Source: Liolophura sinensis (Eukaryota > Mollusca > Polyplacophora > Chitonida > Chitonidae). Taken from it: a DNA stretch of 64,000 nucleotides. Below the pieces are notes generated by a model, which worked only from the letters and a program-made list of their open reading frames with translations, was not told the origin of the DNA and made no database searches. Positions 2,731 through 61,386 of the stretch are shown here, in pieces; the stretch's first letter is position 1; the number at the start of each line of letters is the position of its first letter. Made by a program: the position numbers and the translations under genes. The stretch spans positions 26,423,704-26,487,703 of the forward strand of contig NC_088304.1 of the NCBI RefSeq assembly GCF_032854445.1. The letters are read 5' to 3'.

Positions 2731-2743
2731 ACAAGATTCGGCT

Positions 2744-22034: not shown

Positions 22035-22449
22035 AAAATTAATTTTATTGTTTCCGCCTTTTAACTTGCAATTCAAGGTACTTTCCGCAAACATGCATAA
22101 CAGACAATTTACCTCAGAGAAAAGGTGAAATGATTTATAAAAACACGAAGAAAACGGTTTGTCAGTTTTATAAGCGAAAAACGATTCAAATGTTAATAGC
22201 TTTTTTATCTTCAGTTGTTTAGATGTGCCCTTGAACATAGATCGAAAAGTAACATTAAGACGTCTTCAGCATTCAGTACTACTAATGAGGCTAATACTAA
22301 TAATTCGTCCAGGTATTCCATCTGCCACTATAAAATATTTCATCCTGAGTCAGTTAATTTCGTATGAATGTATTTTTTTTAATTGTTTACATGAATGATC
22401 TAAAAAGAAGCCAACCGTCACTGTAACATTTTGGTCCACTCTCGTGTAG

Positions 22450-25400
22450 TCACGGCTTTGAGTACATATTGACTTTATTATGCTGGTCGTAGCAGCGGTT
22501 GTCGGTTTCTAGAACACCCGATGGAAAACATCGCCAGGCATCCTGGGTGACTTCCCGCCATTCCATCAGGCGTTTCTGAAGACTCTGCAGAACCTGGGCG
22601 TACCCAGGCATGTAGGCCAGGTTTGTCAGTTCCATCGGGTCCTGTTCCAGATCGTACAGCTCCCATTCGTCCCTGTAGTAATACTGATCCAGTGTCTTGA
22701 ACCAGTTCGTCGGCAGTCCGTGAGCCGTCCGGTTCATAGTGTCCATCCAGGTCGGTGAGCCGAACAAGTCCGTGGCCGCTGGGAAAGGCATTTTGTAGTT
22801 CAGGTTTTGTAGCAATCTGTACTTCCCGGATTTGATGACTCTCATTGGATAGTACATGGTGATCTCGTGGAAGTCATGGCTGCCGAATGCTGTGTCCGAG
22901 TGCATCTGTGCGGGTGATGACGTCACCGGAAGTAGTGACGTTCCCGTCAGAGTTACGGTGGGCAGTCCGGTCCGTATCTTGTATTCGGGAAAGGAGACAT
23001 TGAACCAATCCAGAACCGTTGGCACCACGTCAAGGAGACTGGCATGGGACTCAGTTCTCTGTGAATAAATCAAGAAAATTTTACTAATTACCTTACTTTA
23101 AAGGTCAGGAATATCTCACGAGAAAACTGTTTCAAAATCAATGGAACTGGCATTTAGAGGCTACTTTTTGAGGGTCCGAACCTTTGAAAGGTGGCAAAAG
23201 TCTATAATAAAAAATTCTTAATGACGTATTTAGAAGGTTGGTTTCTATTACTGTTTGCAAATTCTTGATTAAAAGTGGTCAATGTGCGACAGATATTATG
23301 TATTTATAATCAACACGAAACTATACACAAATAAGAAAATACAACGGAATAAATATTTATTCATAATTTCAATTTTTAGCAACTGCAATCAAGAAATCAT
23401 GAAGCTCTGTCCACATTACCATTCCGTGACTAGATTTTGGGTAAAATTACCACCTCTACCATCGCCCCTAATGTCTTATGAAACGTCAGTTATAGAAGAA
23501 TACTTCAGTTTCGTCAGACAAAACCGTATACGGGTGATGTTCCTTAACTAAGTTTTGCGCCCTGTGTCCTTATCTAGTATTTTTGGTGTAGTGGCCAGGA
23601 TACCATAATTGGTTTCGCAACATGACACTTCAATTTCTTTTCATAAAAAGGTTGGTCGCTTTCTGACTGGAATATAACCCAGCCTAGCACTTGCTTACCT
23701 GTTTCCAGTACTTATCGTTTAGCGGTGAGTAGACCATCATGTATTCAGATACGTCAGGCCATCTCTCGGCCAGGGGTTGCTCTGTGAACTGCTTATCGTG
23801 CTTTCCGTTGAGGATATGACAAGCTCTGTTACTTACGTGTCCTCGGTATTTATTGTCGAGCAGTGAGGAGACCATCATAGATTCAGATACATGTAAGTCA
23901 GGCCATCTCTCGATCAGGAGTTGCCGTATGGAAATGCTTACCTTTCTCCTGAGCATATGACAAGCTCTATTGTTTACCAGCCCCCAGTGTTCCTTGTGTA
24001 GCGGCGAGGAGGACATCGTGGATTCAGATATGTCAAGTCGTCTCTTGGTCAGGTGTTGTCGTATGTAATGCTTACCTTTCTGGTGAGCATATGACAAGCT
24101 CTGTTGTTTACCAGCCCCCAGTGTTCCTTGTGTAGCGGCGAGGAAGACATCGTGGATTCAGATATGTCAGGTCGTCTCTTGGTCAGGTGTTGTCGTATGT
24201 AATGCTTACCTTTCTCCTGAGCATATGACAAGCTCTGTTGTTTACCAGCCCCCAGTATTCCTTGTGTAGCGGCGAGGAGGACATCGTGGATTCAGATATG
24301 TCAAGTCGTCTCTTGGTCAGGTGTTGTCGTATGTAATGCTTACCTTTCTGGTGAGCATATGACAAGCTCTGTTGTTTACCAGCCCCCAGTGTTCCTTGTG
24401 TAGCGGCGAGGAGGACATCGTGGATTCGGATATGTCAAGTCGTCTCTTGGTCAGGTGTTGTCGTATGTAATGCTTACCTTTCTGGTGAGCATATGACAAG
24501 CTCTGTTGTTTACCAGCCCCCAGTGTTCCTTGTGTAGCGGCGAGGAGGACATCGTGGATTCAGATATGTCAAGTCGTCTCTTGGTCAGGTGTTGTCGTAT
24601 GTAATGCTTACCTTTCTGGTGAGCATATGACAAGCTCTGTTGTTTACCAGCCCCCAGTGTTCCTTGTGTAGCGGCGAGGAGGACATCGTGGATTCGGATA
24701 TGTCAAGTCGTCTCTTGGTCAGGTGTTGTCGTATGTAATGCTTACCTTTCTGGTGAGCATATGACAAGCTCTGTTGTTTACCAGCCCCCAGTATTCCTTG
24801 TGTAGCGGCGAGGAGGACATCGTGGATTCAGATATGTCAGGTCGTCTCTTGGTCAGGTGTTGTCGTATGTAATGCTTACCTTTCTGGTGAGCATATGACA
24901 AGCTCTGTTGTTTACCAGCCCCCAGTATTCCTTGTGTAGCGGCGAGGAGGACATCGTGGATTCAGATATGTCAGGTCGTCTCTTGGTCAGGTGTTGTCGT
25001 ATGTAATGCTTACATTTCTGGTGAGCATATGACAGCTCTGTTGTATACCTGCCCCCAGTATTCCTTGTGTAGCGGTGAGGAGACCATGCCAGGCTTGTAC
25101 AGGTCAGTTTTGGCGTTTGGCCAGGGATTTTCATGGCTCAAATGACATTCCTTCTTGACTCGATTTCTACAACAGAAAAGACTCTATATTGCTTACCTGT
25201 CCCCAGTATTCTTTGTGCAACGGTGAGGAGACCATCATTGGTTCTGACATGCCAGGTTTGTACAGGTTAGTCTTGGCGTTTGGCCAGGGGATGCCGTTGT
25301 CGGACGTGTAAATGACGAGAGTGTCGTCCATGTGGCCAATTTTCTCTAACTCTGCCATGAAAAGTCCAATACCTAGTGGCAGAAGAACGACAACAAATCA

Positions 25401-35558: not shown

Positions 35559-38500
35559 ATGGGTGTAACGCTATGGCTGTTGACCGTGGGGTTGTGCCTA
35601 TCTGCTCTAATACTGCCCGGGTTTGACGGTCTGAATACCGTAGCACCTGGCCGTAGAAATGTACTCGTTATAATAGGTAAGTTCATTTGATCGTCATTTG
35701 GAGTCTGTTCTGAGGATGTGATTGATTTATTAAAGAATTGTGCAGTTCCAATGTAGGCTACAGAGTTAAAATATAAGAGTCATGTCCGGCATTCATATAC
35801 CATTCCTAGTCCGTGAAGGGCGTTCCAAGTCGATAATCGCAAGATCCATGCCCAAAACAACGTTTAACACTAGCTCCCAAAGACAAAGGTATGTAAGAAA
35901 TTATACAAATAAGAAATAAAGCCGGTAACACACAAGAGAGAAGCGGTCATCAGTTTTCAATGATGCCGGGCAGACAGTGGATATTCCAGTCGTGAATTCC
36001 ATATCAAAGTTCAAATTCGTAGTCCATGAATGAGTTCCAGGTCAAATAATAATTAAATAAGTATCTCAAGAAGCTCACGTGTAAGTATATACCTACAAAG
36101 CTTGATTTCACGTTGTCGGATAAACTCAATGCGTTACAAAAGAAAGGCACCAATACCTAATGCCAGGGCGAGTTTAACTGCGCATGACCAAAGTGGAAAT
36201 GGAATTGTGTGCAACGGTGCAAATAGGTCAGGGTTTACTCAGGGGCAGTTGCAATCAAAGCACAACTGAGATAGATTTTTGGGTTATTGAGAGCTTACAA
36301 ACTAGCATTAGCACACGATTTTGATGCTGGTTTCTTTCATTCACCTAAAGTGTTCCTTGCATCTTTCCCAAACCACTGAAAACTGTTCCTTTTTGTACGA
36401 CTCCGTCTTAATTTCGTAATTTATATACCTTTTTTATTTCTTTTGTGTTAAACGTTGTTTTAGGAATTGGCCTTGCGATTATTGACTTGGAATGCCCGTT
36501 TTCGTTGACGACTGGTGTACGAATGTCTGTTTGAACGCCTTGATCAATCTCCATTAGTACCCTATAGCCGAACTAGTCATATACATTAGATACCACTGAG
36601 GTGGCGTGTTCCAATTCATCTCGCCAAGGTTCCTCTGCAACTTCAAGTAGAATGTTGATGAGGAACCTGCATAAAGAAGTGCCAAGTTTCATCGGGCCTA
36701 TAGTACGTTTCAGCCTGGCACTGCTGGGTTTCCTTCACTTCCCTTCCTGTCCGTTTGGGCAATGCATGCGTAAAAAGCAGTGAAGGTATAATAAATATGC
36801 ACCCATCATTGAACTCTAATGTCAAATGGGGTTAACGTGAAAGGGTTCAGTCACATTATAATATGTAAAATTTGTCCTTGTCTTTATTGTGTATACTTCG
36901 CAATACTTGGCATAGGCTATCTTTCGAAAAAAAATAATGAACTACATCATATTGTATTGAGACTCTCCTTTCCAATGCGTTTCCTCCGTATCCAAGCAGG
37001 ACAATGTTCTGTATTTTTTGCAAAGAGCATGCGCATATTCATTGCAGGGGACGATGCCGGCTTCCAGATGGGATTATACAACAACAGCGTCTGTAAGACG
37101 CCCAACTTTGACAAGCTGGCTCAGAGAAGTGTGGTTTTCGATAGAGCCTTTACGACTGTCAGTAGCTGTTCTCCAAGCAGGTCAGCAAAGGCTATAGTTA
37201 CTAGGTTTCAGTCATTCACTTGCCGAACTGTCTAAAACTGTCTCGGTTCAAAACACTTCAATTCTTCACCTATAAGGTCGCTAGTTCGAATGCAGTTGAC
37301 GTTAAACAGAAAGTCTTTTGTTTAAGTGATGCCAAGATGTATTCTGTTATTGTGGCAAATTATTCTGTTAACTATAGCACACGCATTCTGTTATCTCAGC
37401 GTAAGGATTATATTGAATTAACGAGATACCGTGTCGAATATAACAAAGTATTATGCTACAATAACATACTGACTTTCTGTAAAAATTAACAGAATATTTT
37501 TTTAGTGTAGCAATTTTGTAAGATAACTGACAAAGTGCTTTTGTTTCCACGGTCCATGTTTCCTGCTCCAAATGTCTGTTCCAGCAAATCTTGCCATTAA
37601 GTCATTCGTCAGTGGATTCCCTGAGCGGTTTCTTCCTCATCGTTAAACCAGTTAATAGATTTAAATTGATTTACTGATTGGTTGGTTTTTTCTCAATACT
37701 AAACACTTTTCAAGGCGTCAACTTTGAAAACTCGTTAAAAACTCGCTTTGCCAAACCATATGCAGATGAGTACATTCAAAACTTGTTGCTGTCATAAACC
37801 ACGCGTTGACGGATTAAAACAAAATGCTATGGTCAATTTGTCTTTATCTGCTTATGGTTTCTATTCCACCAAAAGGTCGACTCTTATGTCAGGATTACCT
37901 CACTGGCTTGTTTGTAGCACGGTCTGTTAGATACTAGAAACAGGCAAAACGTACAGGTTTCCTCGTTTCAGTTTTCTGCTCCAATTTTTTACACCTTAGT
38001 CTTACTATTTTAACCTGCAACGCTCTTGAGCAAGGAGTTAAATTCCATGTAAAATTCTACAGCACATAGAGCAAAGTCAAAGGAGCGACGATAATCTGAT
38101 AGTTGTCAGTTGGCTACACGTAACCGCTAAAATCCGGCCTCTTGTCAATTCACTACCAACGAAACAAAACAACCATATATTCACCAAAGGTTGTTCGGAC
38201 ACCGTATACTTTACATATACTAAGAGATTGATCAGTTGTTTCATTCGGTGCTCTTTTTTCTTTGCGTTTTGATTGCCGATTGATCAGTTGATGGATATTG
38301 ATTTACTGATTGGTTAGTTCGTTTGTGCAACATTTGTCAAAACATCGATTTTGAAAATCCATGATTTTATAAGTTATTGGTGAGGTGTAACTGGCAATAA
38401 AAATAAAACATATACTAATGCTTGTACGTAAATCGTCATTTCTGTAAATTAATCGTTGATGGTTTTTCAAGAAAACGCTATGGGCGATTTGTCTAAATCT

Positions 38501-41500
38501 GCTTACGCTTTCTAATCCACAAAAAGGTCGACTCTGATGTCGGGCTTGCCTCAGCATCAAAACGGCATGTATGGACTTCATCACGACCCTCATCATTTCA
38601 ACTCTTTCGATGGCGTTAGGAGTTTACCCGTCATTCTGGGGGAACACGGCATCCGGACAGGTAAGACAGATTTAAAATGGTTTGATACTTGTTGCAGTGT
38701 CTTAACCCGAAACGTTAACGTCACTATTACTCTCTCTTAGCTTGTTCTCACAAAGCATCTTGCTCTCTCAAAATATCTCGCTTGACCCGGGGACCTGCAA
38801 TGAAATAGATGCGTTCAGGAGAGGACATCGGTGCACTATGATTGGATACAAATCGTTGAGAAAGCCTCGAGACGGATTGTGCCCAAATCCAAATTTACAC
38901 CGAATTCCAATTCATTTTCAAAGCACTGGGCGATGTTGTATATTGATCATCACATGACGTTACATCATGACTCAATGTGTGGAAGGCCCTAACCGAAGCG
39001 CCTGTGCGGCAGGATAAAAGACAAACCAAACAACTCTTATATAAAAACGTAAATTCTCATATTGAAAAAAAAATACTTAGGCCTGCGAAACGTGTTACAT
39101 TTAACAACTGATCCCAATATAAAACAGGAGTTTATGGCAGATGTCCGTGTTCATTCACTAATATGTGCTAAGTGGAGTCATGCTCTGTATTAATACATTG
39201 TCTGGCTACAAGTCATTATATGTAATCTTAGTATTTACTTAGTGTCAAGCATGTTTGCACTTGCGTTTGAAATAAAACCTAGTAATAATACCCAGATCAT
39301 TGTCACTATTTTTGTTTAGTATCAATGATTGGCAGCCTTTGCAACACCTGCACTTTGTTCAGTAGACAACAGTACGGGCAGACCCCTGTATCTGCGACCT
39401 TCCGAGATACCTATCAATACATGAAAAAAAATATGAAAAATGTAAATGCAACAGATGCCGGATCTATCTAGGTTTATTTATTCATCTATGGTTTTGAAAG
39501 TCTGCGTCTCATGTAGAATGTGACAGTTAAGGCCAACAATTCGTCATTTCAGAACATTAATTTATGTGAACTTATGTATATCCCAACATATATACCTCTG
39601 TCTACACAGTAGGCTGACAGCTGATCTTGGGAAACTGGCAATTAAGGAAAGGAGCGAAACCTGATATGTATCAGCCAAGAATGGAAAGTAAAAATGGCTG
39701 TCTATATATTAGATGAGGACATTGGCAATCAGAAAATCACCACCGTAATTGACACATCGTCAATTCTGTGTCTAGCTATCCCACAAAAAATTAAGATTGC
39801 AAATGTAGTCCGGATATGACCGGCAAAACTGGCTCGCTTAGAGCGCTCTGGACAATTTAAAATCATACCACTGATCCATTACCAGTTACTAATATAGTGT
39901 TTTATAACCCTGACCCTTGTGATAAAAGTGAAACATTATTGAAAACTGAGTATAACGTTATTCAAATAAAAGAAAGGAATAAACTGAAAAATCAACCTAA
40001 TCTTCGATCAATAGAGGATGTATTGGCACACAGACGTTGTATTATTATTATTATTATAATGACTTTGGTAGGGAATTCAATGGATAACCATACAGCCTCC
40101 CAAAACTGATGCCTTAAATAAAATGAATGATCAAGGATTAAAGTAATTTTGCTTGTGTTCGCAGGTATTGTGGGCAAAAAGCATGTCGGTCCAGACACGG
40201 TATACAAATACGATTACGAAGAGACGGAGGAGAATAACAGCCTAGATCAGGTGGGCCGGAATATCACGTACATGATGGAGAAGATTCGCCCGTTTTTGGA
40301 GTCCGACGACACCAGGTAGGTTGTTCTGTTCTTGTAACACAATACCTTTCTAACTTCTTAATCTTAATGTCCGTATGTAGCTTCCTTCTTCAGGTTTATG
40401 ACCAAAACTTGTCCGTCTGGGGCTTCCTTCTTCAGGTTTATGACCAAAACTTGTCCGTCTGTAGCTTCCTTCTTCAGGTTTATGACCAAAACTTGTCCGT
40501 CTGGGGCTTCCTTCTTCAGGTTTATGACCAAAACTTGTCCGTCTGGGGCTTCCTTCTTCAGGTTTATGACCAAAACTTGTCCGTCTGGGGCTTCCTTCTT
40601 CAGGTTTATGACCGAAACTTGTCCGTCTGGGGCTTCCTTCTTCAGGCTTATGACCAAAACTCGTCCGTATGTAGCTTCCCCCCATCAGGTTCACGACCAA
40701 AACTTGTCCGTATTTAGCTTTCTTCATCCAGTTCACGAGCAAAACTTGTCCGTATTTAGCTTCCTCCATCAGATTCACGACCAAAACTTGTCCGTATTTA
40801 TCTTCCTTCATCCAGTTCACGAGCAAAACTCGTCCTTATGTAGCTTCCCCCATCAGGTTCACGACCAAAACTTGTCCGTATTTAGCTTTCTTCATCCAGT
40901 TCACGAGCAAAACTTGTCCGTATTTAGCTTCCCCCATCAGATTCACGACCAAAACTTGTCCGTATTTGGCTTCCCCCATCAGGTTCACGACCAAAACTTG
41001 TTCGTCTTTAGCTTCCTCCATCAGATTCACGACCAAAACTTGTCCGTATTTATCTTCCTTCATCCAGTTCACGAGCAAAACTCGTCCGTATGTAGCTTCC
41101 CCCATCAGGTTCACGACCAAAACTTGTCCGTATTTAGCTTTCTTCATCCAGTTCACGAGCAAAACTTGTCCGTATTTAGCTTCCCCCATCAGGTTCACGA
41201 CCAAAACTTGTCCGTATTTGGCTTCCCCCATCAGGTTCACGACCAAAACTTATCCCTATTTATCTTCCTTCATCAGGTTCACGACCAAAACTTGTCCCTA
41301 TTTAGCTTTCTTCATCCAGTTCACGAGCAAAACTTGTTCGTATTTAGCTTCCTCCATCAGGTTCTCGATCGAAGCTTGTCCTTGTTTCGCTTCCCTCATC
41401 AGCTTGGGACACGACCAAAACATATCCATATTTAGCTTTCTTCATCAGCTTCACGACCAAAACGTTTGGGGAACCCTTTTTCATCAGGTTTCTGAGCGTC

Positions 41501-44500
41501 ATTGATAAAATCTTAATCCAGTTAAAGAGAATTGATACTCATTATTGTGGCTCATTTATACTGATATAGATTTAATACTGTCCATTGTTGTGGCGGCAGA
41601 TCCTTAACTTTCATTACATGCATCGTTGACTGTTTGACGCATTAGGATATTTTCAAGCCTTGAATTTAATACGACGCAAAACTTTGCGGCGTTATTCACT
41701 TCCAATATGGTGTATTAAGACGACTGTAGAATTCGAACACTTTATTCACTCAAAACAAATATGAAAAAAAATAACAATTGGTATGAAAATAATATTCTAC
41801 CCTGAATCAGTATTGACTCATTTTCTCCACTTACACATACGCCTTTTTTTCGGTATCTTTCGCGCACGTGAAATGCATCCGAGGTCGAGAAAATATATTT
41901 AGCAAATGAACAACATCCAAGCTTTTCTTTATTGTAGACCCTTTTTCCTGTACGTCGGATTCTTTGACCCTCATCGAGATGCTTTTGAGAGTAAACATGG
42001 TCCATTCGCCAATAAGTTCGGCAATGGAGAACCCGGCATGGGGGTCATCCCAGACTGGAAGCCCGTCCATTACGACCCAGATGATGTCATCGTACCGTAC
42101 TTTATCCCAGACACCCCCGCCGCCCGGGCAGACATCGCAGCTCAGTACACAACCATGAGTCGTATCGATCAGGGTAGGTATTGAGCAGATATCAATCAAG
42201 TTATCCATCAAGGTAGATGGCTGTTTATTTGCCCTTTTGTTGGCAATTCATTTTTATACAACTGAGTACAAGAGGAAAATCGGCTAAAGAACTGTATCCA
42301 AACGTGATGAGTGTCTAGTTGTTCAGGTTTTCGCTTAATAAATACGCGAGTCTTCTGTTTTAGAGTATTTCAGAATTAAAACGACAGTAAGTCAGTAAGT
42401 AAAATCTGTATAGCCTGCAATGTTTAGATTCCAAAGTGGGAGAACCTTTAAAAAGGATGACTGATCAACACTCCCCAGTTTCACTGAGAATGTGCGTGAA
42501 TATCTGTGCTAGGACGGTGTTGTTGTTGTAGAGTTCTTGTTTTTGATCGCCAGGTTAATTATTAAAGGAGAAGAAAACTTTATAACATGGCACTATAGGC
42601 TGAAAAGAGCACATTTTTTCTATCTGGTGGTTCCTGCTGCATAGTTTTGCCATTTTTCCTCGCCATACACGCAAAGCCTGACAACGGCAAAGCTGGCATA
42701 AATCGCTGAATCCAGGACGTCCTCCATATTTAACACCCTGTAATTTATGCTGGGGTGTGTTGCCTCTCAGCCAATGACAGTCGTTAAAACTGCCGGCTTA
42801 TTCGTGTAAACTTGGGACCTATATCCAACATTTCGGCTTCCCCATCGTCAAGTGGAAAACGAACTGTACTGTCCGTTACCTTCTGGGAAGAAGAGTTCTA
42901 CCGGAAATGTACGAACTGCACTTCGACGGTTTCCGACGGCAATTCTCCTCCTAACACAGAAGACTTCAGGACTAGTTCTTAGGCAAAATGGAGTCACCCA
43001 CAGCGGATTTTGGCTCTGACTTTATTTATAATTTATCAACTTGAGGCACATATTAGAATTTTTTATGGCATTCACCTGCGAGGAAAGGCATACTCTTTTC
43101 AATGGTATTTGATTGATATTTAAATTTTCTTCTCCTTTAAATACTTGCATCGCAGCTTGTGATCGCACAGAGGTTATTTTTCATTCCTATTATGTTGTGT
43201 TGGGCCACTGTCTTTGTGCATTATATATATATATATGGCCTACATATATGTGGCCTACAGGATTTATAGGCCGAGCGTCTCAATACCTCGCAGTTACATG
43301 TAATTTTATGACAACATCCGCAAAAAAACATAATGCAGGAAATAGTCCTCTGCCATATAAGCAGACTTGCGAGATAGACATATGTAATGTTTACAATGAA
43401 GATATTGGAGGCACAGACCTATCGACCTTGACAAATATGTGAGGGTCACTGAACAGCAATGGAGTTCTCCTACACGAATCAATACGTTTAATGAAAATTG
43501 CTTAAAGAGTTTAAAAGATGCCGAGTGAAGCCTGTCACAAAACATAACTTAAATCCTCCCAATGACCAAGAAAATGAATAAGTTTTTCCAACTGTTTAAC
43601 TTCACCAGTAATACACACTGTCGTCACTGCGTTGGTTTTACTCTCTGACCGGTAGTCTTTTATGTAGACCTAAGTTATGTTTTGATCATGTACATGTGGT
43701 ATAAGTTTTCAAACCTTAGCTACAAATTTCCAAAAGATGTTGTGTTTACAAGCAAGTGGGCAGAGGGTTTGACCACAAAAGTTAACAAATTCGCCAAGAC
43801 GCCTAGGCCATTTTTGGCCTATAGTTTAAAAAAAAAAAAAAAAAAAGCAAATTGTGATATCTTGTCGTTCTTCTTTCACTAGGCATTGGACTTATCATGG
43901 CAGAGTTAGAGAAAATTGGCCACATGGACGACACGCTCATTATTTACACGGCCGATAACGGCATCCCCTGGCCAAACGCCAAGACTAACCTGTACAAGCC
44001 TGGCATGTCAGAACCCATGATGGTCTCCTCACCGTTACACAAGGAATCCTGGGGACAGGTAAGCAATATAGTCTATTCTGTTATAGAAATCGAACCAAGA
44101 AGGCATGTTATAGAGCCATGAAAACTCCCTGGCCAAACACAAAGACTAGCCTGTACCGGCCTGCAGTGTATGAACGCACCGTTGTGTTCTTACAGCAAGG
44201 CATATTTATTTATTTTATTTATTGGCGTAATAAATATTTCACTTATACGATGGCCATCAGCATTATGATGTGAGGAAACCGGGCAGAGAACCGGGGAAAC
44301 ACACGACTATCAGCAGGTTGCGGACAGACTTTCCCACATACGACTAGACTGCAAGGAATACTGGAGGCCGGTGAGCACTATAGAGTATTGGGATAGGACT
44401 GGTCATGTGTACCAACCATCTACCCAACGCCATGAATTCTGAATGGATAAACACAAGAGCCTGTGGCTCAGGTATGCCTGTATGAGACAGGATTTTTTTC

Positions 44501-45586
44501 AGCTGTCACAAAACTGAACTATTAATATACATGTTTTTTAAGACAATATCCTGTATGGCAGAAGTGACCATTGCAATTCCACAAAGGGAGTTTCCAGAAT
44601 TCCAGAATGACCAGAACGGACACTCATTATTTGGTTACAGCTAGGAAGAACAATAAGTGGACGGGATGAAACAGTATTGCTCCTTTCTTTTCCTTATGTG
44701 TGGCTTTTTCTTTAGCCATTACTTGGGTTAAGTTGACCGGTTTTTATCAAAAAGAGACAACCAATTATCGTCTCCTTGTCTCCTCCTTTTTTCTCCTAAA
44801 TATGGATAGTCAGGGTTGTAGGTTTTTGGAAATGGGTAAAATCATGCGCAAACACACGTAGCCTATATATAACTATCAATTCCATTGATCTGAAAATAGT
44901 AATCCAATGGTTTCTCGTGAGATGTTCCTGGCCTTGTCATGAATTTAATTCGTATAACCATCTTGTTCTACCTACAGAGAACTGAGTCCCATGCCAGTCT
45001 CCTTGACGTAGTGCCAACGGTTCTGGATTGGTTCAATGTCTCCTTTCCCGAATACAAGATTCGGGCCGGACTGCCCACAGTAACTCTGACGGGAACGTCA
45101 CTTCTTCCGGTGACGTCATCACCCTCACAGATGCACTCGGACACAGCATTCGGTAGCCATGACTTCCACGAGATCACCATGTACTATCCAATGAGAGTCA
45201 TCAAATCCGGCAAATACAGATTGCTACAAAACCTAAACTACAAAATGCCTTTCCCAGCGGCCTCGGACTTGTTCGGCTCACCGACCTGGATGGACACGAT
45301 GAACCGGACGGCTCACGGACTGCCGACGAACTGGTTCAAGACACTGGATCAGTATTACTACAGGGACGAATGGGAGCTGTACGATCTGGAACAGGACCCG
45401 ATGGAACTGACAAACCTGGCCTACATGCCTGGGTACGCCCAGGTTCTGCAGAGTCTTCAAAAACGCCTGATGGAATGGCGGGAAGTCACCCAGGATACCT
45501 GGCGATGTTTTCCATCAGGTGTTCTGGAAACCGACAACCGCTGCTACGACCAGCATAATAACGTCAATATGTACTCAAAGCCGTGA
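35559..45586 (+). CDS. SGSH: N-sulfoglucosamine sulfohydrolase (sulfamidase), copy B (7 exons)
   Basis: Coding exons: 35559-35676, 37048-37180, 38527-38660, 40165-40315, 41938-42173, 43883-44058 and 44978-45586. Splice sites are GT-AG and the phases join into 518 residues (human about 502). Function as for copy A: lysosomal removal of N-sulfate from heparan sulfate. Seen: signal peptide in exon 1; Asp41/Asp42; Cys80 in CSPSRSTLMSG, the sulfatase maturation motif, split by intron 2 within Arg84; GKKH; DPHR with His191; DNG (282-284); Lys291. Compared with copy A, about 26 of 518 residues differ by eye, 8 of them in exon 1. Residue 188 is Phe here but His in copy A and human; the neighbouring His191 is kept. 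Introns 2, 4, 5 and 6 carry a pseudo-exon, a 42-bp array, a MITE and exon-6 remnants plus a SINE. The terminal exon of 202 residues includes the C-terminal SGSH domain and a conserved NRT sequon. Confidence 0.94.
37660..37930 (+). pseudogene. duplicated intron 2/exon 3 junction (pseudo-exon) in SGSH copy B
   Basis: The block from TTGATTTACTGATTGGTTGG through GCTATGGTCAATTTGTCTTT to the acceptor-like AAAAG and GTCGACTCTTATGTCAGG resembles the true junction at 38297-38560 in the same order. The copied exon begins at 37876 and reads STLMSGLP, then leaves the exon sequence and stops 10 codons later. If spliced in, the product would end soon after the Cys80 motif. Confidence 0.75.
40370..41480. 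repeat. 42-bp minisatellite in SGSH copy B intron 4, about 26 units
   Basis: Units alternate around CTTCCTTCTTCAGGTTTATG, ACCAAAACTTGTCCGTCTGG and the variant CTTCCCCCATCAGGTTCACG. 42 is a multiple of three, so a 14-residue periodic frame stays open for 345 codons on the plus strand (40398-41435), and long frames are open on the minus strand too. Each unit contains a pyrimidine run followed by CAG/G, resembling a 3' splice site on the sense strand. Copy A has no matching array in its intron 4. Confidence 0.92.
42562..43140. mobile_element. MITE-like element with TTAAAGGAGAAGAAAA ends
   Basis: TTAAAGGAGAAGAAAA at 42562-42577 is exactly the reverse complement of TTTTCTTCTCCTTTAA at 43125-43140. 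The interior has no coding capacity. The same terminal sequence begins a block at 60217. Located in intron 5 of SGSH copy B; not seen in copy A intron 5. Confidence 0.7.
44100..44385 (+). pseudogene. exon 6 remnants in SGSH copy B intron 6, split by a SINE-A
   Basis: 44107-44160 (CTCCCTGGCCAAACACAAAG, ACTAGCCTGTACC) matches the [10 protein letters not shown] part of exon 6. 44348-44380 (TGCAAGGAATACTGGAGGCC, GGTGAGCAC) matches the HKEYWGQ end plus donor. A minus-strand SINE-A (44198-44346) sits between them. The same kind of partial exon-6 copy borders the 134-bp array in copy A, so the first partial duplication probably predates the inverted duplication. Confidence 0.75.
44198..44346 (-). 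mobile_element. SINE-A (truncated, antisense)
   Basis: TTTATTTATTTTATTTATTGG, AATATTTCACTTATACGATGG, CATCAGCATTATGATGTGAGG, CAGCAGGTTGCGGACAGACTT; the head is absent. Confidence 0.8.
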
Positions 45587-47103
45587 CTACACGAGAGTGG
45601 GCCAAATTGTTACAGTGACGTCTATTCGTGGATTAAAACTATAATGTATAGACTTACAACGTGGTCGGCTTCTTTTCGGCCAATGGTGTAAGTATAGAAA
45701 ATGACTACGTTTATACATGCATACAATCACATGACAGACACAACTGATCAATTTCAGCATTGTTACAGTGGTCTCTTCCGCCAACATGGCAAACCTTTAA
45801 TGCTCATTTTCGCGATTGAAAATGTAAGCGTTACAAATGCGCATGCGTGGCTTACACTGGGCAATTCTGGCCTTCCACCCATGACACCTGCCACTGCGAT
45901 AAAATAAGTAAAATATACCGAATCTATCCACACTAATGATTTAAGTCAAATAAATCTGTTTTGTTACGTTTCACTAATAAACTGACCACGTCCCTGCCTT
46001 TCCAATACTTTTCCCACTGCGGCAATCATGGATGTACATGCATTTTTCAAAGGGGCACAGGTATGTGCCTTCAGTTTAATCTTTTTCTGTCAAATATAAC
46101 ACACATATTCTATTAAATCAACGAGAAGTTTGCATTAGACTAAGACGATATTATGTTTGAATAAAAATGTTCTGGACAAAATTGTAGGTAATTAAACAAG
46201 AGTAAGTTTCGACAAGCTTTTAATTCACCTGCAAGTGTTATTATCTTTTTCCTTGGTAAGCGTGCTTTCGTAAATCATTTCACCTTTACTGTTTACATGT
46301 TCACAGAAATATTCATTTCATATGCTAATTATACTCATGAATCTGACATTTTTATACCAGCCGTCATCCAATAAGGTCAAATATCCAACACGACGTATAA
46401 CACAAACCACCAAAGAACTAAGAAAGTATATAAAGTACGAAATTAGAACGGAATCGTGCAAAGAGAAGCCGTCAACAGACTTCAGTGATGTTGGAGAGAT
46501 GCTAGGCATGTTCTAGGCGACTGACAAACAAGCAAAATATTATATATCACTAAATGCCGGAAAATGATTCGTGTCCGAAAATACACAAACTGACCGGGAA
46601 CGACCCTCGTACTCTTGCAATTCGCATTTACGGGAAAGTAGCTAAGGCCTAGTCAACACTATGGTCTACTTCTGTTAGCGAGTCGCGTATAGTCAGCAAC
46701 TGTTTTTTTTTTTTAAATAATTATGACGACACCCGAGGCAATGGGTTCTTGCCGTCGAAACCGAACTGATTGACTTTAACATTATACATTAGAAAAAGTG
46801 TTATAATTTCATTTCCCTTGCAAGAATATGAACTTCAAACCTATCGATGTGTAGAGCTTGTGTTGTTACGTGTCACTGACTGAAGGCAATTTTCGTAGCG
46901 AGTATGCCTGATTTACAGACCACTGAATATAGGCGACTGGCTCAAAGAATTACACTATTGCACACACTTGATTACAAACAATAGCAAAAACTGTGTTGAG
47001 TCTTGTCTACCCATATTAGCAGATGCAGGTCTGGCTCCCTGACCACCCAGCTGTCTTAGACTTGACAAAGACTATAGTCTTAATATCAGTATTATTTTTC
47101 TTT
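45587..47103. other. noncoding downstream of SGSH copy B
   Basis: The first about 35 bases past the stop still match copy A (ACTACACGAGAGTGG, GTTACAGTGACG), then similarity is lost. No canonical AATAAA is seen close to the stop. Contains repeat family D (46355-46440) and the second copy of repeat family G (46718-46945). Confidence 0.5.
46718..46945 (+). repeat. interspersed repeat family G (copy 2)
   Basis: Same ordered motifs as 27405-27640 (GGGTTCTTGCCGTCGAAACC, GACTTTAACATTAT, GCTTGTGTTGTTACGTGTCA, TGAATATAGGCGACT). Confidence 0.65.
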
Positions 47104-47450
47104 ATAAGTGAGTGAGTGCTTGGGGTTTAACGTCGTGCTCAACAATTTTTCAGTCACATGAGGACAAAGGAATCCCTAGGGTGTATGTAATCTACGTCCT
47201 TATTGCAGGACGGATTTTCACCGCTCTTTTATCTAGTGCTGCTTCACTGAGACGTAAGTAAGGCGCCCCGCCCGAGCCATTATACTGATTCGGGTCAACC
47301 GGTCGTTGCAATATCCGCTTGATGCTCAACGCCAAGCGAGGAAGTTACAACTTACTCTTTTAAACTTCTAGGTGTGACTCGACCCAGATTGATCCTGGAT
47401 ATGCCGCTCCGGAAGCGGACGCTCTACCCAACTGTGCTATCCGGGCTGAT
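47104..47450 (-). mobile_element. SINE-B (near full length, antisense)
   Basis: AAGTGAGTGAGTGCTTGGGG and TTTAACGTCGTGCTCAAC through GAGGAAGTTACAACTTACTC to CAACTGTGCTATCCGGGC; the complement of the copy at 6160. Confidence 0.88.
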
Positions 47451-48070
47451 TTATTCTTTATGTTTTACTGCACTAAAATGGTTACTAACGTTAGAGAATA
47501 TATATTTTACTACTAACAGTTGTTTAAGACTTTCATGACAAGTTTAGAAATAGTACCATGAGTTAAGCCTATGTTTGACTTGCAGAATACATGAAAAAGC
47601 ATTATAAAACGTATAGTATATGGTTTTGAGGATGCTGAAGAAAGATATGCAAAGAAAAAAAAAGAGAAAAAGATATTTCATTTTTGAAGCGTATTTTATA
47701 TTTCTTCATAACTTCTCTATTTTCCGTCAGTGGTCGGAAATATTCGGAAATGACGTCGTCAAAGAACAGACTGGGAGCGCGGAACTTAATTTCGGCTCTC
47801 TCCTCAAGCAAGTTGTTTTGACAGCTATTACCCTTGACGTCTCCAATTCAGGATATTTAATATCCGGAATCCGTGGCTTTTCCTCGGCATTCGAACCAAA
47901 AATCGCAAAGATGTGACATTCGCTTAACTCTCAAAGAGACGAGCTCAACTGTTTCATCTAGGGTTGCATTCCAAATAAAGGAAAACGATTAAAAAATATG
48001 CTACAATCGAAAAACCCAATAATGAACGAACCAAAACAATGACGGAATGACGGAAAAACTCACTAGTAGA
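47451..48070. other. noncoding
   Basis: Contains 47645-47775, the partner of the short repeat at 9985-10110. No gene recognised. Confidence 0.45.
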
Positions 48071-51075: not shown

Positions 51076-54000
51076 TTAATCCAAGGTTTGTATGCCATAT
51101 ATATTGTTGTATTTCTTCTTGTCCAAAGACAGCACACTGGAAGGTACAAGCTGATGTTTGCCTGCAGCTTGTCTCTGCTTCAGATACTGCTCTGTGAAGA
51201 AACGAAGGGCTTCTGATAGGTTCTCCTGCTGATGGAATTCTCTTAACTGTGAGGAAAGAAAAGACATACATGTACTTAAGTCATATGACCAACAACTAGC
51301 CAGGATCCATGTCTATTTTCCCTAAACCAATGGCTGCTCCAACTCTAAAACTAAAACCAGGAATTACCAAATAATTTTTGAAAACTACTACAACCTGTGT
51401 CCTTTAACAGAAACATGTTGATCAGATCATGTGTGTTCTGTATATGCTTTTGTATCAAGTAAGTACAAAAACATGACACCTAATTTACATATTTTAAAAA
51501 TCAATATTCATGCAAGTTATTAGATCACTGAAAGACTACAAATATGATACGTTCCATCCTCAAGGTCATCCTCAAGGTCAGTGCACATTCTCATGTATAT
51601 TCTGAACTTTTGCCTGAACACGTAAGGCTGTTCGAACAGCCATTAAGATGCAGAGGTCAGCATTCAAATAGACAACTCCATAGGTCAGGGATACTAATTC
51701 TGAATAAACAGCTTAATCACTGATTAAGAATTCATCACAGAGGGTATGAAGGGAGTAAAATATCCAAGTACAAAGTTAATTTTGACCCACTTCAACTGTT
51801 GCCCTAGATTCCAGTGAAAACACCAAATGGTTACACTCAAAATGGCTACACTTGATGTCTTCCATTCTACAAAATAGCAGAAAATTCTTTCTAATTTTTC
51901 AACTTCCTGACAACAAAAATGAGAATTCCCATTCATTTCTCATCCTGGAAAGAGATTACTACATTAGATCTAAAGTTTTATGAGTTACTCACTTTGCCGG
52001 ATTCTGAGAGTTCTATGGATCTTATAAAGATGTATTCTTAGAAAGATATATCCCACTTTGTGATGAAAAAGTTTCAGCAGCAACAGTAATATTTTATGAC
52101 CTTTTATTGGTTTTTTCGGGGTAAATGCAGTAGCACATCCAAACAAAAGTAAACAACATGGATCGGTTCCCCAAAGCCATTTCTGACCATTTTTTCAAGG
52201 CAATCTTTGAACTCATTTTTCGGCTTCAGAAATTAAGATTTTGTCCACCTCATCAATATTATCTCAAAACAAATGTGTCCAAATTTCATTATTCCACTAC
52301 AAAAAACTAAGAATTGTCAAGAGGTTTTAAATTTTGACATAGAATGGCCTTGTGGAGTCAGCCGCTGATAACTATACTTTTCCACTGCTGCTACAGCAAC
52401 ACAACTTCTATTTCCTAGGAATTAATTCTTCAACATATACAAAGCTTACATTCATCCACTGGCAATCTGCAATTTCCTTCTCACAGGCGTTTATCTCTTC
52501 ACTGATTGGCCGCATCAGGCAAACAAAGTACACGTCGGAGCAGCCGAACCTGTAGCCGTGCTGATGTCGGAAGCTCAGTATTGACACAAACTGGCAGGGA
52601 ACGCCCGTCTCTTCTAGAACCTCTCTCTGACAGGCCTCTGTGATATCCTCACCTGTGAAATCACCATGACAACCAATATTTATACCTGGCATCACCATGA
52701 CAACTGATATTGCCTCTCATCACCATGACCTGGCATTACCATGCCGACTGATGTTACCATGACATGACATTACCATGACAACTGATGGAACATGACATCA
52801 CCATGACAACTAATGTTTCCTGGCATCACCAAGACAAATTATATTACCTGACATCACCATGACAGCTAATATTACCTGGCATCACCATGACAGCTAATAT
52901 TACCTGGCATCACCATGACAGCTAATATTACCTGGCATCACCATGACAACTAATATTACCTGGCATCACCATGACAGCTAATATTACCTGGCATCACCAT
53001 GACAGCTAATATTACCTGGCATCACCATGACACCTAATATAACCTGGCATCACCATGACAGCTAATATTACCTGGCATCACCATGACAACTAATATTACC
53101 TGGCATCACCATGACAACTAATATTACCTGGCATCACCATGACAGCTAATATTACCTGGCATCACCATGACAGCTAATATTACCTGGCATCACCATGACA
53201 ACTAATATTACCTGGCATCACCATGACAGCTAATATTACCTGGCATCACCATGACAGCTAATCTTACCTGGCATCACCATGACAGCTAATATTACCTGGC
53301 ATCACCATGACAGCTAATATTACCTGGCATCACCATGACAGCTAATATTTCCTGGCATCACCATGACAGCAAATATAACCTGGCATCACCATAGCAGCTA
53401 ATATTCCCTGGCATCACCATGACAGCTAATATTACCTGGCATCACCATGACAGCGAATATAACCTGGCATCACCATAGCAGCTAATATTCCCTGGCATCA
53501 CCATGACAGCTAATATAACCTGGCATCACCATAGCAGCTAATATTCCCTGGCATCACCATGACAGCTAATATAACCTGGCATCACCATAGCAGCTAATAT
53601 TCCCTGGCATCACCTCCAATACAAATCCAACAGGCGTCCTGATGCCACTAAAAAATGATGATTCCACAAACCAAAGGATGTTATTTCTAATATGTCTGAG
53701 TGCTTGTTTGTTCTTAGACGAATCGTTGCCCTTACGGCTTATTTAATTCATGGAGGCTTTCCCAACTTGACAATTAGAATAACGCAAGCCGTGTTTAATT
53801 TTGTGTTAGAATATGTAAACAGTGTTGTTCTATAAGATATGATGAAAAGGATTACTGTACCCAGTGTTGTTCTATAAGATATGATGTAAAGGATTACTGT
53901 ACCCAGTGTTGTTCCATAAGATATGATGTAAAGGATTACTGTACCCAGTGTTGTTCTATAAGATACGTTGTAATGGATTATTGTACACAGTGTTGTTCTA

Positions 54001-57000
54001 TAAGATATGATGTAAAGGATTACTGTACCCAGTGTTGTTCTATATGATGTACAGGATTACTGTACCCAGTGTTGTTCTATCAGATATGATGTAAAGGATT
54101 ACTGTACCCAATGTTGTTCTTTAAGACATGATATAAAGGATTACTGTACCCAGTGCTGTTCTATAACATATGATGTAAAGGATTACTGTACCTAGTGTTG
54201 TTCTATAACATATGATGTAAAGGATTACTGTACCTAGTGTTGTTCTATAAAATATGATGTAAAGGAAAACTGTACATAGTGTTGTTCTATAAAATATGAT
54301 GTAAAGGATTACTGTACCTAGTGTTGTTCTATATGATGTAAAGGACTACTGTACCCAGTGTTGTTCTATAAAATATGATGTAAAGGATTACTGTACCTAG
54401 TGTTGTTCTATATGATGTAAAGGATTACTGTACCCAGTGTTGTTCTATAAAATATGATGTAAAGGGTTACTGTACCTAGTGTTGTTCTATATGATGTAAG
54501 GATTACTGTACCCAGTGTTGTTCTATAAAATATGATGTAAAGGATTACTGTACCTAGTGTTGTTCTATAAGATATCATGGATTACTGTACCTTTATTAAC
54601 ATGACCACCTGGTAACTTCCAGTGAGGGTTTTTGGTAAATTTCTCCTTCACAACCAACAACTGCTGCCTGTCATTCACCACAAACCCACCAGCACCTTCA
54701 AACAAAAAGAACAAATAGTATTTATTTTGTTATTTATTTCACTGAAGCTCTATGCTGTAGCTCTATGCTTCACTTATGGAACACCAGTCAGCAATACGGT
54801 GAGAAGACACATGGCAGCACCTGGGGGAAACCCATGACCATTCCCAGGTTGCTGACAGACCTTCCCAAGTACCGTACAACATTATAACAGTCACTAGAGT
54901 AAGTGAGTGAGTGAGTGCTTGGGGTTTAACGTCGTACTCAACAATTTTTCAGTCATATGACGACGAAGGGATCATTAGGGTGCATATACGTGTAATGTGC
55001 CTCCTTGTTGCAGGACGGATTTCCACCGCTCTTTTATTTAGTGCTGCTTCACTGAGACGACTTACCGAAGGCAAGTAAGCCGCCCCGCCCGAGCCATTAT
55101 ACTGATACGGGTCAACCAGTCGTTGCACTATCCCCTTCATGCTCAACGCCAAGCGAGGAAGTTACAACTTCCTCTTTTAAAATCTTAGGTGTGCCTCGAT
55201 CAAGGATTGATCCTGGATCTACCGGTCCCGAAGCGGACGCTCTACCAACTGTGGTCACTAGAATAAAGTTCCAGTCTATGCATACAGACACTGTGCTTGA
55301 CCTACCGCTATTCCTTTACTCTAAGGACAGTTTGGTAAAAAATGTCTCACTGTACCATTGTTCTGAATATACATATATATGAACACAATAACATGGCCAT
55401 TTCACAGCGTTATTTTGAGCACACAACTGATACAGAAAATTGAGGAGTTGAGCTTTCCTGAAGGAAAAAAGGTGTCATTCGTGCCTGGAACACAGAGACA
55501 GGTAATAGATAAGTCTGTAGGCTTTTCATTACCTTTAACAACAAAAGGGTTCGATCTCAAAACTCCCCTATTATATATTTATAAGTTTTTATAGGCAAGA
55601 CTGAAAATACACTGTAGATGTCCGGTGTGGAAAGCAGGTGTCCTACGTTCGCGGACTACACAAAGGAGTAAAATATAACTACACATGTGGAAGTACAGAT
55701 ATCTTACCCATATACTGATTGGCATACTCTGGTAGCTGGCTAGGTTCATCCTCAAGAAGCCAGCGATTCATCATCACATAGCCTGGCTGAGCATGGTGGA
55801 ACTCAAAGTCAAACTGAAACCACAACAACATGTCAGCAAATGATAAACTTTGTGAACTATTAATTAAATATTGTAGCTGTTCACTGCCCTCAGGTTTTAA
55901 ACTGGAGATTATTTATGTGTTATGCTTCACATACATTTTCTGTTTGTTTCCATGATGTAATGTTGTTTTCAACATTATTTTGTGTATATCAGACACTGTT
56001 CGTGCATACATAGTTGAGTGGGCTTGTCTCAATGTTATCAAATAATTACCTCTGCACAAACACTAACAACTGAGCACTGCTTTGTTGGAATCTTAACTGA
56101 AACCCCACGAATTCCTGATGACTTCCACGCATCCAGAGATCCTGAAATACAAGTATATTAGAGTACAAAGATTATACATGTTACAAGTTACAAGCGTACC
56201 GATATACAGACATGCAGACAAATATGCATCCTTTTGGTTCTTCATTTTCACTACTGATCACCTGTCCATGACAAGTAGACATAGGTTGTGTTCAAGCCAA
56301 CAGGTTGTTGTTGATGGCATCCAGGAATTGATCACCTCAACTTTAACTAAAAAAAGGCAGGTTAACTTGACCGAGACCTAAACATCAGCCTGTAAAATTT
56401 TACAAAGCAAATACCTCAATGTACTTGTTAATTTTCAACCATACTATTTTTTTTTTTTTTTTTTTCGGTGTTGATCGGTGTTTTATGCCGTACTCAAGAA
56501 TATTTCACTTATACGACGGCGGCCAGCATTATGGTGGGTGAAAACCAGGCAGAGCCCGGGGGAAACCCACGACCATCTGCAGGTTGCTGGCAGACCTTCC
56601 CACGTACGGCCCGAGAGGAAGCCAGCATGAGCTGTTCTTGAATATTGCCTGGACTGACAAATTCACACACTCATTTGCATTTTTTTTTTGTTTTTTTGTT
56701 TTTGTTAAAGTGAGTTAATAACTTCTATTTTGACACATCACAGACACTATATGTTTTACCTTTTAATTTGTATTGGAAATCTTCTGTGTCTGCAAAGGTC
56801 TGTTTCCCAACATCTAGTGTAATGCACTGGAACCTGGAGGAAAAAAGGACAAGAAACATGGCTAAGTCAAGGTTAAGTCAATGCTTAAGACATACTGACA
56901 AAATGCCAACTCAGACTTGCTGGCAGAGGACATACAGGCTTAAAGTGACTGGTGGCACACCATTAGCTCTCCACAAGCACCATAACAGCTCACCAAAAGC

Positions 57001-59705: not shown

Positions 59706-61386
59706 TCAGTCAAGTCCTTCTCTCTCTTTGAAAGCTAGCTTCCGTTCCAAATTTTTCTTGGCTCGTATTTTCTTGGTTTTCCTGCTAATGGAATCCTCCC
59801 TCCTCTGTTGCTCTGTAAAGCTCTTCTCTCTGTTCATCTCCACGTCAAGCAGTTCACGTAGTTTTTGGCGGGCAATTTTTCTGTTAGTGTCCAATGACCT
59901 TGTTTCATGACACTGAAAAACCCAAACAAACAATCATTCTGTTAGCATCCAATAACCTCGTTTGACCTCGTTTCTAGGAAAATGAAAACAGCATACACCA
60001 TTTAAAATATTAAAAACCAAGACATAATATACTTCAAAATCAGACATGAGACCCTCTTACTCACAATATACTGACAACGAATCAACCAGTGGTTCCCCCA
60101 ATTTTCTCTTACTGTGAAGCTACACTTAAGACGTGTTAATACCACATCAATTTAGCATGCATTAACAGTATTTAGTATGAAATTTACAACTACTGTTATT
60201 ATTTCTTTTCTTTTTTAAAGGAGAAGAAAACATAAAAGTGATGCTGAAATCTGATGAAAGAGCATCAAAACTTATTTCCAAATATGATATAATATTTTTT
60301 TGAATTTTTTTTTTTCAAGAGAAAAGGGTATTTGAAAATATTTTTATATGGTGGGTAGTTTGGACCAGCTTTTGGTATTTATCGTTGTTGCATAATAATG
60401 TTCTAAATAAGGATGTGATGCTTGTTTAATAAATTTATTTGAATGTAAATTTGTTGTTTATATTGAAACATAAACATTTAACCTAAATTATGATAATATT
60501 TATGAACATATTACAATATAAATGTGATCCAAATTGAGGTTTAATACATTTGCTAGCTGAAAAGAACAAATTTTAGTGCAAAAATATTTATTAAACCTGT
60601 GTTACATCCTCATTTATGACATTATTTAATAAAGACTATAAATACCAAAACGTGTTCCCAAATAACCACCATACAAAAATTATTTTCAAGTAACTTTTTT
60701 TCCTTAAGGAAAAATAAGAAAAACATTGAAGACCACATTTAGGAAGAGCTTTTGGCACTCTTTCATCTGAACTTTATGTCATTTTTATGTTTTCTCCACC
60801 CTTAAATTAATATAACAACACAACCAAAAGTACTGAACAAGATTAACACTGCTGTGCTCACTTTCACCATGAGTCCTGAGGGCCGATGTTTCAACACAAC
60901 ACAGTTGGATGTCTTATTGACTGACTGACCCCCTGGGCCACTTCCTCTCACAAACTGTTCTTCCAAATCTGACTCCAGAAGTTCCGGAAACTCGTAGTGT
61001 TTCTTGGAAATGTACCTCAGTGATATCCCACAGCCTGCCGAATCCTTGTTTGATGGCACCTCTTTAATACCTCTGGAAGTTTTACTCAACCAATGGCAGT
61101 TCACAGATTGGTGATATTGTCGACACATTTGACCAATCACTGTAAAAGAAGGCTGGCCAATCACAGTAAAAGAAGGCTGATCAATCACACTGAAAGAAGG
61201 CTGACCAATCACAGTTAAAATAGCCATTTTCTTCACTGACAGGATATGGCTTGTTTTTTCTGGATCTGATAAAAAGTCTTCCCAATATTGTGGTAGCTGA
61301 CTTGCACTTCTCCATGCCTGGTGGAAGTACTGACACATTTGATGAAAGCTGATAAGTGCTTTTCTTTGTGATGAGATAGTTGCCAT
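59706..61386 (-). CDS. MTRFR: MTRFR/C12orf65-like mitochondrial release (rescue) factor
   Basis: Two coding exons: 61386-60862 (175 residues) and 59912-59706 (68 residues plus stop), phase 0, donor GTGAGC, acceptor TTTCAG; 243 residues (human 166). Exon 1 ends with the class I release-factor GGQ domain: [20 protein letters not shown] with GGQ at 152-154, then [13 protein letters not shown]. Exon 2 begins [15 protein letters not shown] and ends in a Lys/Arg-rich helical tail ([15 protein letters not shown]), as in MTRFR. The protein rescues stalled mitochondrial ribosomes by peptidyl-tRNA hydrolysis and lacks codon-recognition domains. The long N-terminus should hold a mitochondrial import signal, and contains an 8-residue repeat (QPSFTVIG-like, about residues 58-86). 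CAG/GTGAATA just upstream of the ATG suggests a 5'UTR intron. The coding intron holds a foldback element (60225-60750). Confidence 0.9.
60217..60750. mobile_element. foldback/MITE-like element F (copy 2)
   Basis: The left arm (TTTTTATATGGTGGGTAGTT, TTTTGGTATTTAT) mirrors the right arm (ATAAATACCAAAACGTG, TAACCACCATACAAAAA) over more than 50 bases. The interior matches 27690-28140. The block starts TTTAAAGGAGAAGAAAAC, the same terminus as the MITE at 42562. Lies in the MTRFR-like intron. Confidence 0.65.

What the first reader, a model, noticed from the sequence alone, without database searches (positions are those of the whole stretch)
52450..54695. NUDT6-like intron 5 is two minisatellites, each seeded at a splice site
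The real donor sequence GTACAGTAATCC is the start of the 42-bp unit repeated about 19 times downstream. The real acceptor TTGTCATGGTGATTTCACAG is a variant of the 28-bp unit (TGTCATGGTGATGCCAG/GTAATATT) repeated about 30 times upstream. So both ends of one intron have been amplified inward, and only about 200 bases in the middle are unique. The intron interrupts the Nudix box, so accurate splicing is essential. With the SGSH arrays this is at least four arrays in the window that contain splice signals, suggesting a shared mechanism such as replication slippage at splice junctions, or tolerance of splice-site-bearing repeats.
Basis: partly seen in the sequence, partly recalled or inferred. Interest (0 to 1): 0.8.

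Follow-up and report, generated by a model that had tools for sequence, protein, structure and literature searches.

The report
Splice-site minisatellites in a chiton intron
One intron of a chiton gene is almost wholly made of two short repeated sequences, one carrying the intron's start signal and one its end signal; similar introns are common in this genome, about as common as random duplication would make them, so it is a striking case of a known oddity rather than a special mechanism.

Summary
The NUDT6-like intron (52653-54590, minus strand, 1938 bp) consists of a 42-bp array that starts on the donor (18.6 copies) and a 28-bp array that ends on the acceptor (30.2 copies), with 204 other bases between. 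The genome matches the Liolophura sinensis assembly (chiton, first published as L. japonica). I tested the idea on 156 introns from six gene families of this genome. Arrays fill 22.1% of intron DNA; 12 of 59 arrays, in 11 introns, touch or cross a splice site. A finished array dropped at random into today's introns gives 2.35. A seed unit dropped at random on the intron as it was before the array grew, exon overlap allowed, gives 10.89 (P=0.40; P=0.16 if two near cases are added). So preferential seeding at junctions is not shown, and splice-site-bearing duplications are tolerated. The closest known structures are amphioxus 'mirages' (PMC3087553, PMC3902484). SGSH-A in the same window is a boundary-spanning mirage. 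NUDT6 is a flush-edged variant whose repeats take in no exon sequence detectably. Splicing itself was not observed.

The parts
54591..54695 (-). NUDT6-like exon before the intron; encodes the start of the Nudix box (WKLPGGHVNK)
52653..54590 (-). the intron, 1938 bp, GT...AG, splitting a codon after its first base
53820..54590 (-). 42-bp minisatellite, about 18.6 copies; its first unit begins at the donor (GTACAGTAATCC)
53616..53819 (-). 204 bp outside the two minisatellites
52653..53615 (-). 28-bp minisatellite, about 30 copies; its last unit ends in the acceptor (TGTCATGGTGATTTCACAG). Units from 52861 to 52668 are degenerate, the core is uniform
52450..52652 (-). NUDT6-like exon after the intron; rest of the Nudix box (GEDITEACQREVLEETG)
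23720..25196 (-). SGSH-A, 5' part of an intron: a partial copy and an array (134-bp unit x 8.8 at 23906-25082, further diverged copies to 23720) that carry the exon end ([17 protein letters not shown]) plus donor; used donor at 25196. Boundary-spanning (mirage)
43998..44163 (+). same boundary in the inverted paralog SGSH-B: exon end plus a remnant copy, not expanded

Best explanation
Two independent local tandem duplications arose in a short ancestral intron (about 270 bp by subtraction). One began flush at the donor and one ended flush at the acceptor. Ordinary minisatellite turnover (slippage or unequal exchange) then expanded them to about 19 and 30 copies, which made up nearly all of today's intron. 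Splicing survives because the outermost copy at each end lies next to its exon, while inner copies lie inside the intron. Nothing need favour splice junctions as seeds: the genome is rich in minisatellites, many introns were short, and duplications that carry splice sites are tolerated. Shown: the arrays, their coincidence with the homology-supported splice sites, the frequency in a sample of the genome and its fit to random seeding. Inferred: the order of events, the expansion mechanism and faithful use of the outermost sites.
For: Both intron ends match the array units far above all 156 control introns. Each array was found at one place in the genome, the 42-bp one with a single 69% relative on C1; that search skips very common words, so it is no proof of rarity. 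In 156 introns 12 of 59 arrays touch a splice site against 10.89 expected from random seeds (P=0.40), 2.35 for random placement of finished arrays and 2.62 for seeds kept out of exons. Eight of the 12 cross 15 bp or more into the exon. Without using array edges: 16 of 312 junctions have a copy of themselves (75% identity or more) in their own intron, against 0.1 for junctions of other introns. For NUDT6 the seed model gives 0.33 and 0.25 for the two arrays and 0.041 for both ends of one intron; L154 is a second two-ended case. The SGSH paralogs show the process: a boundary duplication seen in both copies, expanded in A only. Units next to the NUDT6 acceptor are degenerate, as reported at cluster boundaries of an amphioxus globin mirage. 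The array fraction is 10.3% in 60 kb of random sequence and 9.9% in the window.
Against: The random-seed expectation depends on subtracting the array from the intron; with today's lengths it falls to 4.75 (P=0.0014). By subset the fit is uneven: set 1 has 4 against 2.72, set 2 has 3 against 5.03, set 3 has 5 against 3.13. The 10-bp rule undercounts: L141 and L153 carry junction copies without touching; with them 14 of 59, P=0.16. NUDT6 differs from most sampled cases: its repeats stop at the junction, and the exon side matches the unit no better than other exon ends do (donor P 0.71-0.87, acceptor P 0.13-0.31). Flush edges at both ends are not what a blind seed would most often give.
Confidence: 0.7

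Rival explanations
1. Splice junctions are preferred seeds: something about donors and acceptors (paused replication, R-loops, short AG/GT microhomology) provokes tandem duplication there.
For: Junction arrays exceed random placement of finished arrays (12 against 2.35) and the seed model with today's intron length (4.75, P=0.0014). NUDT6 edges are flush with both splice sites. Counting two near cases gives 14 against 10.89.
Against: The seed model with ancestral intron length gives 10.89, P=0.40, and 8.90-10.89 under unit-length caps. Junctions are often well inside the repeated segment (8 of 12 cross 15 bp or more into the exon), not at its edge.
Confidence: 0.17
2. The arrays are kept because they help splicing: repeated splice signals, or RNA pairing between the two arrays, bring the ends of the intron together.
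For: NUDT6 has a weak used donor (5.3; only 7.4% of 148 sampled donors score as low), so help would make sense. Many 28-bp units carry average-strength donor motifs (cag|GTAATA, 8.4) and many 42-bp units acceptor-like motifs (up to 10.8).
Against: Predicted pairing between the two units is no better than between shuffled units (-23.6 against a mean of -26.4, P=0.65). Those strong motifs lie at the wrong ends of the intron and would act as decoys. The random-seed fit leaves nothing that needs a benefit.
Confidence: 0.06
3. The intron is removed in steps (recursive splicing) through the AG|GT points of the 28-bp units.
For: Many units hold CCAG|GTAATA, an acceptor end fused to a donor of average strength.
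Against: The typical acceptor copy scores 3.9, and only 1.4% of 148 sampled acceptors score as low; it lacks a pyrimidine tract. No RNA evidence.
Confidence: 0.03
4. The intron itself was born from a tandem array, as in the AGGT-duplication model of intron gain.
For: The intron ends lie in repeats, and the acceptor junction CAG|GTGAGG also reads as a donor, score 11.0.
Against: Donor and acceptor lie in two different units (42 and 28 bp), not two copies of one unit. The age of the intron position could not be tested here.
Confidence: 0.04

Closest known systems
'Mirages' of amphioxus (Adh, troponin C, globins BflGb6 and BflGb9, PGBD5); PMC3087553 and PMC3902484, passages read
   Same: Minisatellite-like tandem repeats at an exon-intron boundary, at 5' or 3' boundaries, many with copies of AG/GT signals; in BflGb6 cluster boundaries escape homogenisation; reported not to disturb regular splicing.
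   Different: There the repeat spans the boundary and contains exon sequence; the NUDT6 repeats end at the junction. Copy numbers here are higher than the copies described in the passages I read (30 in NUDT6; up to 88 by TRF in the sample), the host is a mollusc, and both ends of one intron are affected.
Tandem repeats at exon-intron boundaries and intron gain: human variable repeats (PMC2812944, passages read) and intron gain by AGGT duplication (potato RdRp, PMC4974935, start of abstract seen in a listing)
   Same: Tandem duplication that carries splice signals changes gene structure; the human study notes variable repeats at the exon-intron boundary.
   Different: There a new intron forms through activated or duplicated splice sites. 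Here one intron carries two unrelated arrays, one at each end, and nothing shows that it is new.
Intronic minisatellites of molluscs, e.g. the 27-bp unit in abalone TSSK1-like intron 3 (PMC6905558, passages read)
   Same: Intronic minisatellite of similar unit length; repeat number differs among individuals.
   Different: The passages read do not place that array at a splice site.

Membership tests
mirage (NUDT6 arrays) | tandem repeat located at an exon-intron boundary | tested here: met
   Both arrays run to the junctions
mirage (NUDT6 arrays) | repeat spans the boundary, i.e. contains exon sequence | tested here: not met
   Exon side matches the unit no better than other exon ends: donor P 0.71-0.87; the acceptor is weaker evidence, P 0.13-0.31
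mirage (NUDT6 arrays) | copies carry AG/GT splice signals | tested here: met
   Many 28-bp units carry CCAG|GTAATA, most 42-bp units GGTACAG
mirage (NUDT6 arrays) | boundary units excluded from homogenisation | tested here: met
   Acceptor-side units from 52861 to 52668 have alignment scores of 6-21 (some are shorter units) against up to 28 in the core; not examined for the 42-bp array
mirage (NUDT6 arrays) | normal mRNA splicing undisturbed | not testable with these tools
   No RNA data; only protein homology
mirage (SGSH-A array) | repeat spans the boundary, i.e. contains exon sequence | tested here: met
   Units repeat the exon end [17 protein letters not shown] and its donor; 18 intact donor-like copies by a 60%-identity scan
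intron gain by AGGT tandem duplication | 5' and 3' splice sites derive from two copies of one unit | tested here: not met
   Donor in the 42-bp unit, acceptor in the 28-bp unit
intron gain by AGGT tandem duplication | intron position is new | not testable with these tools
   No other mollusc genome is held

The most novel reading that the evidence does not exclude
Splice-site minisatellites are a bulk feature of this genome. If the sampled rate (11 of 156 introns) holds, thousands of introns carry from a few to dozens of copies of their own donor or acceptor, often as strong as the site in use. Site choice in such introns would then have to rest on position next to the exon rather than on sequence, a natural experiment on exon definition, and their expansion would be a main source of intron length in this lineage.
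Probability: 0.5. Interest if true: 0.68.

Novelty: new variant of a known kind. Interest (0 to 1): 0.45.

Why it matters
In the papers I saw, boundary-spanning repeats are described gene by gene in lancelets, with a set of human cases. Here 11 of 156 sampled introns (7%) of a chiton have a splice site touched by a minisatellite, in step with blind seeding. That suggests that a genome with many minisatellites and short introns will produce such introns by itself, and that selection does little to remove them. In several introns the used site is no stronger than its inner copies: in L055, 42 of 47 intact acceptor copies score at least as high as the used one, and in L133 all 10 intact donor copies do. 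RNA data from this species could therefore show how far position alone decides splice-site choice.

Tried and rejected
Mobile element: not supported; each array was found at one place, with one weak relative of the 42-bp array. That relative (L061) holds a degenerate 38-bp x 41 array; I did not find out what it sits in. RNA pairing between the arrays: no signal. Recursive splicing: acceptor copies too weak. PF00501 and PF00083 gave too few multi-exon hits to use. Literature searches (open-access library only, of which 42 returned nothing): in the listings I saw mirages in amphioxus and none in a mollusc. The original amphioxus Adh report was not read; it is known to me.

Sample, with what was left out. 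Rows of the family listings were typed into scripts by hand. By recount against the listings: 101 of 109 SNF and 75 of 81 myosin rows; 127 of 132 kinesin and 38 of 99 p450 rows. I meant to leave out rows that ran through an intron or had no neighbour; at least one dropped SNF row (C8:39266847) could have formed a pair. Set 1: the 62 pairs that the typed rows formed, all fetched. Set 2: 56 of 69 pairs (52 with a gap of 350-3500 bases plus four of 3702-5065; my note had said 400-3500; 11 shorter and 2 longer pairs left out). Set 3: 39 pairs picked by hand from coordinates, before any of that sequence was seen: 18 TCP1 and 21 tyrosine phosphatase pairs, with one or few per gene cluster; the phosphatase listing was itself cut. 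L069 was dropped as a near copy of L068, leaving 156 introns. Eight introns with poor splice calls stay in the main count; without them 12 of 58 arrays touch against 10.86 expected. With a 20-bp rule the count is 13 of 59 against 12.54. The edge-free scan (75% identity) misses L118, whose array crosses the acceptor by TRF but differs by an indel, and its single-copy hits include L048, which has a poor splice call. The 60 kb of random sequence is six stretches of 10 kb.
Full report
What is there. The gene is on the minus strand and is NUDT6-like: the joined exons match the NUDT6 entry 3h95 (E=1.8e-23) and Nudix hydrolase 7, 4zb3 (E=1e-33). The intron lies at 52653-54590 and splits the Nudix box after K in GGHVNK|GEDI. 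Its first base begins GTACAGTAATCC of a 42-bp unit repeated 18.6 times, and its last bases are a variant of a 28-bp unit repeated 30.2 times; 204 bp lie between. Against 156 other introns of the same genome these end matches stand far out (scores 32 and 23; best controls 12 and 10).

Which genome. The window is G000:C10:26423704-26487703 in an assembly of 632 contigs and 609,464,459 bases. The published Liolophura assembly has 632 scaffolds, 609,495,693 bases, longest 96,433,062, N50 37,343,639; contigs C1 and C9 have exactly those two lengths, while C6 and C10 are a few thousand bases shorter than scaffolds 2 and 6 of the paper, so the held copy is not letter for letter the published one. A correction names the species L. 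sinensis instead of L. japonica. The paper's repeat table gives 0.08% for simple repeats, microsatellites and RNA together, while TRF arrays cover 10.3% of 60 kb of random sequence. Most minisatellites are therefore probably under 'unclassified' or not counted; that is inference.

The genome test. I took neighbouring exon hits of six Pfam families (SNF, myosin head, kinesin, p450, TCP1, tyrosine phosphatase), called the splice sites with frame and profile continuity plus a weight matrix, and ran TRF. In 156 introns (186,822 bp) arrays of 60 bp or more make up 22.1%; 59 arrays lie in 37 introns; 12 of them, in 11 introns, come within 10 bp of a splice site or cross it (7 donor, 5 acceptor). In 19 of 156 introns the arrays are half or more of the intron; in L118 they are 97% of 4.7 kb. 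A second test ignores array edges: at 75% identity 16 of 312 junctions have a copy of themselves in their own intron, against a mean of 0.1 when junctions of other introns are used.

Three null models. A finished array dropped anywhere in today's intron: 2.35 expected. A seed that must stay out of the exon: 2.62. A seed unit dropped at random on the intron as it was before the array grew, exon overlap allowed: 10.89, P=0.40. I hold the third to be the fair model, because arrays grow from inside after seeding. It stays close under caps on unit length (8.90-10.89), but with today's intron lengths it gives 4.75 (P=0.0014). By set the counts are 4 against 2.72, 3 against 5.03 and 5 against 3.13. 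Two further arrays carry junction copies without touching (L141, L153); with them 14 of 59, P=0.16. So random seeding in short introns is enough to explain the number; a bias of up to about two-fold would not be seen here.

How the process looks. SGSH-A and SGSH-B are inverted duplicates in the window. Both hold a duplicate of an exon end near its donor; in A there is an array of 8.8 units of 134 bp, in B no array. In the NUDT6 28-bp array the acceptor-side units are degenerate and the core is uniform, which fits an old edge and a younger, homogenised core.

How splicing could cope. The used NUDT6 donor is weak (5.3) but stronger than the copies found (at most 3.6). The used acceptor (9.2) is stronger than the 28-bp copies (2.3-6.6, most 3.4-4.3), through a TTTCACAG end. 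Yet the intron holds 53 donor-like sites at least as strong as the used one, in the 28-bp array. In the sample, intact copies at least as strong as the used site number 42 of 47 in L055, 10 of 10 in L133, 6 of 6 in L086, 2 of 2 in L035, 1 of 1 in L037, 7 of 14 in L153, 5 of 10 in L143, 3 of 6 in L125, 2 of 4 at the L154 donor, but only 4 of 39 in L116, 1 of 17 in L038, 1 of 18 in SGSH-A and 0 of 49 at the L154 acceptor; in L118 the ungapped scan found no copy. Reading on past the NUDT6 donor meets a stop after eight codons, while use of the next inner acceptor would add eleven residues in frame; homology speaks against that insert. I infer that the outermost copies are used because they bound the shortest exon; RNA would be needed to show it.

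Relation to known things. The structure is close to the mirages of amphioxus (passages of PMC3087553; PMC3902484). SGSH-A meets the boundary-spanning definition; the NUDT6 arrays do not, since no exon sequence is detectably repeated. I therefore call NUDT6 a flush-edged variant. In the searches named under Tried and rejected I saw no report of mirages in a mollusc.

Judgement. The preference half is not needed, though not excluded. The lasting interest is the frequency and the stock of natural decoy-site introns.

Noticed in passing
22416-30823 (-) and 36997-45620 (+): Two SGSH-like genes in inverted orientation with 83-95% identical blocks; they differ in their arrays (134-bp units in A, 42-bp x 26 in B), so arrays arose or grew after the gene duplication.
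   Followed up: partly
61130-61220: 24-bp x 3.8 array in a 195-codon open frame upstream of a GGQ (release-factor-like, MTRFR by recall) motif; whether it is coding or ends at an acceptor is open.
   Followed up: partly
L154 (G000:C7:1346619-1350254): A tyrosine phosphatase intron with arrays at both ends, donor 68 bp x 1.9 and acceptor 50 bp x 56 that includes 30 bp of the exon; 88% of the intron is array.
   Followed up: partly
L141 (G000:C3:24430228-24432683): Six acceptor-like copies lie 458-1186 bp upstream of the used acceptor, spaced 91-182 bp, in an array that does not reach the junction.
   Followed up: partly
6171-6523, 47107-47452, 54902-55253: A dispersed repeat about 350 bp long in three copies, 84-97% identical.
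   Followed up: no
6866-9599 and 17379-20468: Two similar open-frame groups that look like paralogous acetyltransferase genes; name recalled, not searched.
   Followed up: no
L061 (G000:C1:81301588-81305920), 1907-3457: 38-bp x 41 degenerate array, the only other place that the search showed as resembling the 42-bp array (69%).
   Followed up: partly
whole genome (sample): Minisatellites cover 10.3% of 60 kb random sequence and 22.1% of sampled intron DNA, yet the genome paper lists only 0.08% for simple repeats, microsatellites and RNA.
   Followed up: partly
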